Part shown: positions 457 to 3,303 of the stretch, piece by piece
Layout of the letters: every line of letters begins with the position of its first letter
Numbering within the stretch: the first letter of the stretch is position 1
The notes under the pieces: generated by a model
The model's database searches: none
The model's input: only the letters and a program-made list of their open reading frames with translations
Told to the model about the DNA's origin: nothing
Made by a program: the position numbers and the translations under genes
Assembly (NCBI GenBank): GCA_945874755.1
Contig: CAMCHR010000001.1
Span: 23,914-87,913, forward strand
DNA length: 64,000 bases
Direction: 5' to 3'
From: Chitinophaga pinensis
GTDB lineage: Bacteria > Bacteroidota > Bacteroidia > Chitinophagales > Chitinophagaceae

Positions 457-671
457 GTAAAAAATAGCTTTCCTGCGTAATCCGTTTTCTTTATATCGAA
501 AGAAGCTATTTTCATCTATAGAGTGCAGTAAATAAATAGTTTCTGAAGTAACCCGTTTTTAGGATTATAAATGGAAGCTATTTTCATCTATAGAGTGCAG
601 TAAATAAATAGTTTCTGAAGTAATCCGTTTTTAGGATTACGAAGGAAAGCTATTTATTTACTGCAATCCTA
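457..671. repeat. Three tandem ~72-bp palindromic units (intergenic)
   Basis: Units 457-527, 528-599 and 600-671. Units 2 and 3 share gtaaataaatagtttctgaagtaaYccgtttttaggattaY. The unit-3 stem is gcagtaaataaatag...gtaatcc / ggattac...ctatttatttactgc. Confidence 0.85.
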
Positions 672-722: not shown

Positions 723-730
723 TAATTTTG
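723..730 (+). promoter_or_regulatory. Candidate Bacteroidota -7 box (TAATTTTG) for sodA
   Basis: Exact TAnnTTTG match 34 bp upstream of the sodA ATG. No clear -33 TTG seen. Confidence 0.45.
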
Positions 731-2481: not shown

Positions 2482-3303
2482 TTAAGCTAAATCTGTGTGA
2501 TTTGCAGCAATTTTTTGGCCAAAGAACAAACTTCCTTTCTCCTCAAAGCTGGTAGGATTGTCTGTAGTGAAAAACTGTAGTTGCCCATTTTTACTGCATT
2601 TTTGGTCCATTTCTGGGTGATTTTGCAAATAACTAGCTAAACTCTTTGCAACAATATCCCCTTGGGTCACTAATTTGACATTTTCTGGTAAGAAGCTTTG
2701 TATCTTTTTTTCCATCAAAGGATAATGGGTGCAGGCAAGCAATACGGTGTCTATTTGGGCCGATTGAGAAAATAGTTGGTCAATGTATAACTGTACAAAA
2801 TAATCGGCACCTGGGCCATCTTGTTGCCCATTTTCGATCAATGGCACCCACATAGGGCAAGCTTGTTGAAAAATGGATGCTTCTGGTGCAAATTTTGACA
2901 ATTCAATAGGATAGCTTTCGCTCTGAATCGTACCTGTTGTTCCTAAAATACCTAGATGATGCGATGAGGAATAGCTGCCTAAGATTTCCGAACTAGGTCT
3001 GATTACACCTAATACTCTTTTATCTGGTGCAAGATGGGGCAGGTCCAACTGTTGGATATTTCTAAGTGCTTTAGCAGATGCTGTATTACATGCTAAAATA
3101 ACTAAGCTACAACCTTGTTTAAAAAACCATTCTACTGCTTCCAAAGTATATTGGTACACCGTATCAAAAGACCTTGTTCCATAAGGCGCACGGGCATTGT
3201 CTCCCAAATAGAGATAATCATATTGAGGCAGTTGCTGCTTCAATTCTTTTAAGATGGTTAAACCACCATAACCACTATCAAAAACGCCAATGGGTGCTTG
3301 CAT
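2482..3303 (-). CDS. murI: Glutamate racemase
   Basis: PIGVFDSGYGGLTILKEL, LGDNARAPYGTRS, ACNTASA, LLACTHYPL motifs. Confidence 0.96.
   Translation of the reverse strand: MQAPIGVFDSGYGGLTILKELKQQLPQYDYLYLGDNARAPYGTRSFDTVYQYTLEAVEWFFKQGCSLVILACNTASAKALRNIQQLDLPHLAPDKRVLGVIRPSSEILGSYSSSHHLGILGTTGTIQSESYPIELSKFAPEASIFQQACPMWVPLIENGQQDGPGADYFVQLYIDQLFSQSAQIDTVLLACTHYPLMEKKIQSFLPENVKLVTQGDIVAKSLASYLQNHPEMDQKCSKNGQLQFFTTDNPTSFEEKGSLFFGQKIAANHTDLA

What the first reader, a model, noticed from the sequence alone, without database searches (positions are those of the whole stretch)
457..671. Three tandem ~72-bp palindromic units between tadA and sodA
Sequence shows three head-to-tail units, units 2 and 3 nearly identical. 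Each core can fold as aatagYtt...gtaaYcc-loop-ggattaY...aagctatt. Unit 3 extends to a ~30-bp stem (598-626 with 634-664). No coding potential or transposase nearby. Could be a REP/MITE-type element, a structured RNA or a DNA-binding array.
Basis: partly seen in the sequence, partly recalled or inferred. Interest (0 to 1): 0.6.

Follow-up and report, generated by a model that had tools for sequence, protein, structure and literature searches.

The report
Conserved hairpin element upstream of sodA
Between two housekeeping genes of a freshwater Sediminibacterium there is a tandem, partly inverted array of a 62-base DNA hairpin that recurs at the same few genome positions in related species, changing its paired bases together; it resembles known bacterial palindromic repeats but matches no named family, and its job is unknown.

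Summary
Window 457-671 carries a tandem array (72-bp period, about 2.6 copies). Units 2 and 3 are 94% identical; unit 3 is a near-perfect hairpin at 596-665. Unit 1 is a chimeric remnant that begins with an inverted half-copy.

The genome belongs to Sediminibacterium. The element is not a high-copy repeat: this genome has it at two loci, and the genus at three orthologous intergenic sites (tadA-sodA; TonB receptor/SAM hydrolase; next to an ABC permease). It was not found convincingly elsewhere in Chitinophagaceae, phages or plasmids, and Rfam has no match.

Across the three loci the hairpin shows strong two-sided covariation with almost no G-U. At tadA-sodA it is 92.5% identical on average while flanking fourfold sites are 48% identical. 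It is often lost, duplicated or inverted.

It lacks the GTAG/CGTC tag of REPs, and no Y1 transposase was found in this 83%-complete genome. No intrinsic terminator, attC boxes or internal promoter were found. Best reading: a genus-restricted, low-copy foldback element, mostly vertically inherited, shaped by replication template switching and probably under selection for an unidentified hairpin-binding factor. New variant of a known kind; function unproven.

The parts
457..527 (.). Unit 1: chimeric remnant; 457-483 is an inverted half-copy of the element, then a degenerate right half (GAAAGAAGCTATT) and spacer
528..588 (+). Unit 2: complete but partly decayed hairpin element
   Evidence: 74.2 bits with model R1
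596..665 (+). Unit 3: near-perfect hairpin; 62-nt core 600-661, inner stem 620-626/634-640, loop 627-633
   Evidence: (89.6 bits, but the sequence was in the model)
459..658 (.). Segment bounded by 25-nt inverted repeats (459-483 / 634-658, 92%); the corresponding segment is inverted between relatives G093 and G001
723..730 (+). TAATTTTG, match to the Bacteroidota -7 promoter consensus TAnnTTTG, probable sodA promoter, downstream of the array (consensus from general knowledge)

Best explanation
The array is a local expansion of a genus-restricted, low-copy foldback (palindromic) DNA element of Sediminibacterium. Shown: one hairpin architecture occurs at three orthologous intergenic sites; its stems co-vary; its loop (C-GTTTKTA-G) and the TAG/bulge/CTA joint are kept; it is lost, duplicated and inverted among species. 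Inferred: at tadA-sodA it is old and mostly vertically inherited. Replication through the hairpin (template switching between arms or copies) makes tandem copies, inverted copies such as unit 1 and compensatory stem changes. Sequence-specific recognition of the folded hairpin, probably as DNA, by an unidentified host or mobile-element factor keeps the loop and joint conserved.
For: Three sites in the genus and two in this genome. Covariation: 93.5% of cells paired against 78.3% shuffled; score 0.381 against 0.115 shuffled and at most 0.124 slid; 47 double-sided against 2 single-sided changes. Core 92.5% identical where fourfold sites are 48%; unpaired bases 88% between clades. Right-flank similarity between clades i and ii, p 0.0006-0.014, absent against locus-2 flanks. 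Clean inversion G093/G001, 200/211 identical only when inverted. Relatives with empty spacers. Template switching is reported to homogenise arms and invert spacers (PMC8604942) and to create and repair stems (PMC8794818).
Against: No recognising factor is identified, and no expression or binding data exist. Flank evidence for common descent is weak for G024 and the G020 group, so repeated insertion or lateral spread is possible. Presence needs at least five changes on the gene tree, unusual for a strongly constrained element. Covariation cells count sequences, not independent events. The DNA-over-RNA preference is indirect.
Confidence: 0.5

Rival explanations
1. Conserved structured RNA (3'-UTR or leader hairpin) that stabilises or regulates the tadA or sodA transcript; the fold is selected as RNA.
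For: Strong structure conservation and covariation, conserved 7-nt loop and internal loops, sequence constraint despite near-saturated synonymous sites, and a constant orientation in the single-copy tadA-sodA loci.
Against: Both orientations occur at locus 1 and locus 2; G-U changes are almost absent (2 against 47 double changes); at loci 2 and 3 the element lies beyond intrinsic-terminator-like hairpins of the neighbouring gene; no Rfam match.
Confidence: 0.22
2. A recently mobile REP/MITE-type element spread by a trans-acting transposase, inserting repeatedly at preferred intergenic sites.
For: Patchy distribution, high identity across diverged species, a 21-22 bp direct repeat flanking the copy in G006, and several other palindrome families in the same spacer.
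Against: Only three sites in the genus; flank homology between clades; no Y1_Tnp in this genome or in 35 of 41 genus genomes; direct repeats not evident at the other sites (by eye).
Confidence: 0.18
3. A neutral local hairpin kept palindromic only by mutational arm-correction, without function.
For: Arm homogenisation and double substitutions are expected from template switching (PMC8794818, PMC8604942); rearrangement and loss are frequent.
Against: Template switching does not preserve loop and internal-loop bases, yet these are 88% identical between clades while fourfold sites are near saturation.
Confidence: 0.1

Closest known systems
REP elements / BIMEs (GTAG- and CGTC-tagged palindromes, RAYT-associated; PMC3733652)
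   Same: Intergenic palindromes, sometimes clustered in opposite orientation, folding as hairpins
   Different: No GTAG/CGTC tag, about 62 nt rather than 20-40, one or two loci per genome rather than high copy, no Y1 transposase detected
MITEs / foldback elements
   Same: Short, non-coding, terminal arms complementary, filled and empty sites in relatives
   Different: No parent transposon found, no consistent target-site duplication, tied to three orthologous sites
Quasipalindromes shaped by template switching (PMC8794818, PMC8604942)
   Same: Double-sided stem changes, inverted copies, segment inversion
   Different: Here loop and bulge sequence are also conserved, which that process does not explain
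Integron attC sites
   Same: Folded hairpin with an extrahelical base and a variable stem (comparison from general knowledge)
   Different: No R-box consensus in 436-763, no cassette array seen

Membership tests
REP (GTAG/CGTC) elements | Unpaired GTAG or CGTC tag at one end | tested here: not met
   No GTAG, CGTC or GACG in 436-763; a single CTAC at 669, outside the hairpin
REP (GTAG/CGTC) elements | High copy number | tested here: not met
   Two loci in this genome, three sites in the genus; first-look filters may miss diverged copies
REP (GTAG/CGTC) elements | RAYT (Y1 transposase) in the genome, for GTAG REPs | tested here: inconclusive
   No PF01797 hit in the own genome, 6 of 41 genus genomes have one; the own assembly is 83% complete
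MITE | Terminal inverted repeats | tested here: met
   Arms pair over the whole element
MITE | Target-site duplication | tested here: inconclusive
   21-22 bp direct repeat in G006 only; others show none by eye
MITE | Related autonomous transposon | not tested
   No systematic transposase search beyond PF01797
Structured regulatory RNA | Covarying fold | tested here: met
   with the caveat that arm-correction can mimic it
Structured regulatory RNA | Transcription and constant strand | not testable with these tools
   No RNA data; both orientations occur among genomes
Intrinsic terminator | GC-rich stem followed by a T run | tested here: not met
   No terminator-like site in 400-760; the two found lie at 1331 and 1393
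Integron attC | RYYYAAC / GTTRRRY boxes | tested here: not met
   None in 436-763
Promoter inverton | Promoter within an inverted-repeat-bounded invertible segment | tested here: not met
   Only TAnnTTTG match is at 723-730, outside 459-658; inversion between species is shown, within-population inversion not testable

The most novel reading that the evidence does not exclude
Sediminibacterium carries a superfamily of foldback elements with one shared plan: variable, co-varying AT-rich outer stem, a single bulged base near its inner end, and a conserved core. A dedicated, still unknown hairpin-recognising factor would act on them, and the tadA-sodA spacer would be a preferred site where such an element modulates sodA.
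Probability: 0.2. Interest if true: 0.6.

Novelty: new variant of a known kind. Interest (0 to 1): 0.38.

Why it matters
It is a compact natural case for separating three causes of stem covariation: selection on RNA, selection on a DNA hairpin, and mutational arm-correction. Double-sided changes outnumber single-sided ones by more than twenty to one, while unpaired bases stay largely fixed across near-saturated synonymous divergence. It also shows that a low-copy palindromic element can persist at orthologous sites, invert and expand without an obvious transposase.

Tried and rejected
High-copy REP family: own-genome searches and the genus-wide model search give only three sites, and a relaxed pattern was not enriched over its control. 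Caveat: genome searches score only the best first-look candidates, so diverged copies may be missed. Virus or plasmid origin: the 11 viral-contig matches to the inner stem lack the outer stem; the two contigs read carry phage structural genes and the match looks like coding sequence. The second pattern gave no viral match. S. aureus plasmid matches cover 37 bp and look like chance; no phage match. Rfam microRNA names are far below their gathering scores. Intrinsic terminator, attC and promoter inverton: see the membership table. I tested whether outer stems of the neighbouring families are copied from the target at insertion: stems fall into subfamilies that recur at different sites, and the window's spacer, which lacks that family, lacks the stem sequence, so the elements seem to bring their stems along. 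A related core was not found in other sampled genera of the family.

Full report
OBSERVATION. The spacer between tadA (ends 435) and sodA (starts 764) contains the array as described. TRF reports a 72-bp period with 2.6 copies; units 2 and 3 are 94% identical. Unit 3 is a hairpin at 596-665, the strongest 80-nt fold in the 64-kb window (-36.7 kcal/mol). The region folds far better than dinucleotide shuffles on both strands (z -5.85 and -4.85). Unit 1 is not a plain third copy: it joins an inverted half (457-483) to a direct right half. No ORF of 60 aa or more and no Rfam family above its gathering score lies there.

WHERE ELSE. Named relatives of sodA place the genome in Sediminibacterium. In the own genome, searches find the units here plus a second locus on another contig (G000:C4, about 52.7 kb) between a TonB receptor and a SAM-hydrolase-like gene (gene names from sequence, not from a family search). 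A covariance model built from 11 copies gave hits at E<=1 in 27 of 121 genus genomes. The strong hits are at tadA-sodA (about 17 genomes) and in the TonB/SAM-hydrolase spacer (7 genomes). Weaker hits in four genomes form a third site beside an ABC permease; two further weak hits (L161, L162) look like chance. Family-wide there was one weak hit outside the own genome. A relaxed pattern was not enriched over its control. So the element is low-copy and tied to particular sites.

STRUCTURE. Eighteen distinct sequences from the three loci were aligned in one orientation. The proposed fold pairs 93.5% of cells against 78.3% in shuffles (0 of 500 reach it); the covariation score is 0.381 against 0.115 shuffled and at most 0.124 when partners are slid. 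Nine pairs change on both sides; the pair at columns 11/42 is C-G, A-U or G-C in different copies. Double-sided changes number 47 and single-sided ones 2. Conserved across loci are most of the loop GTTTKTA, closed by C-G, and the joint TAG / one unpaired base / CTA, whose bulged base itself varies (G, T, A). Cells count sequences, not independent events, and shuffles ignore relatedness, so the slid controls are the fairer comparison; the structure was also derived from these sequences.

CONSERVATION AND DESCENT. At tadA-sodA, in 16 genomes, the core is on average 92.5% identical while fourfold-degenerate sites of the flanking genes are 48% identical (120 of 120 pairs in the same direction). 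Unpaired bases alone are 88% identical between clades. Template switching could maintain pairing but not these bases. Presence maps to three clades with a minimum of five changes on the tadA+sodA tree, so losses or gains are frequent; relatives with short, empty spacers are common. The 25-nt right flank is similar between clades i and ii (p 0.0006-0.014) but not to flanks at locus 2, which favours descent at the locus over repeated insertion. That evidence is weak for G024 and the G020 group, so lateral spread remains possible.

REARRANGEMENT. The elements at tadA-sodA without a second inverted copy nearby read in the direction opposite to the window's units 2 and 3; the window orientation occurs where extra inverted copies exist. 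G093 and G001 differ by an inversion of about 210 bp: 200/211 identical when inverted, 139/236 when not. The corresponding segment in this window has no TAnnTTTG promoter element; the only one, at 723-730, lies between the array and sodA. Tandem triplication also occurs at locus 2 in G075. Inverted copies, spacer inversion and double-sided stem changes are what replication template switching is reported to produce (PMC8794818, PMC8604942).

WHAT IT IS NOT. REP elements are 20-40 bp, high-copy and mostly carry a GTAG or CGTC tag, and GTAG REPs are linked to RAYT transposases (PMC3733652). Here there is no such tag in the hairpin, copy number is low, and there is no Y1_Tnp hit in this genome or in 35 of 41 genus genomes. 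The assembly is 83% complete, so an enzyme could be missed. There is no intrinsic terminator, no attC box, no Rfam match, no phage match and no credible virus or plasmid match.

WIDER SETTING. The same spacer holds other palindromes in relatives. They share a plan with the window element: variable outer stem, one bulged base, conserved core. By eye tadA-sodA looks like a hotspot; the excess over other spacers was not tested formally.

MECHANISM. Shown: fold, covariation, site-restricted distribution, inversion, duplication, loss. Inferred: recognition of the folded hairpin by a trans factor, DNA rather than RNA as the recognised form, and template switching as the source of copies and double changes. 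The effect on sodA or tadA is unknown. I put 0.50 on a vertically maintained foldback DNA element, 0.22 on a structured RNA, 0.18 on a recently mobile REP/MITE and 0.10 on a purely neutral hairpin.

Noticed in passing
L029, L030, L031, L138, L171, L172, L281-L286; own genome G000:C34:16681-16758: A second palindromic family (core ACCCCTCACCCTCATGCGGAAGGAACCGAAATCGGTTTCGGGGT) with subfamily-specific, complementary outer stems (ACATAG, AGATAG, ATATAG); one copy in this genome.
   Followed up: partly
L033, L034, L173, L175, L287-L294: A third palindromic family (core TTTCTCGTCTCGCTCTACGCANGCTCGAAAGCTCGTCTCGAAA) dispersed in several Sediminibacterium genomes, outer stems differing between sites yet complementary.
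   Followed up: partly
L243, L245, L246, L250, L251, L260, L265: A fourth family (core CTAGGCCTCCGCAGCAAGAACTGAAGTCGGCTAC) in the tadA-sodA spacer of other species, all in the same orientation; its core resembles that of the second family.
   Followed up: partly
L037 (G006), around 3030-3140: The locus-2 copy in G006 is flanked by a 21-22 bp perfect direct repeat (GTACGAGTATTTAAAATAAAA), possibly a target duplication or a tandem-duplication scar.
   Followed up: partly
L268 (G042) and L264 (G108): The family-A element is truncated and joined to a third-family palindrome, evidence that the spacer loses and replaces such elements.
   Followed up: partly
L220 7238-7294 and 7371-7427; L230 3561-3650 (own genome): Further palindromes in this genome with other cores, one present twice about 130 bp apart.
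   Followed up: no
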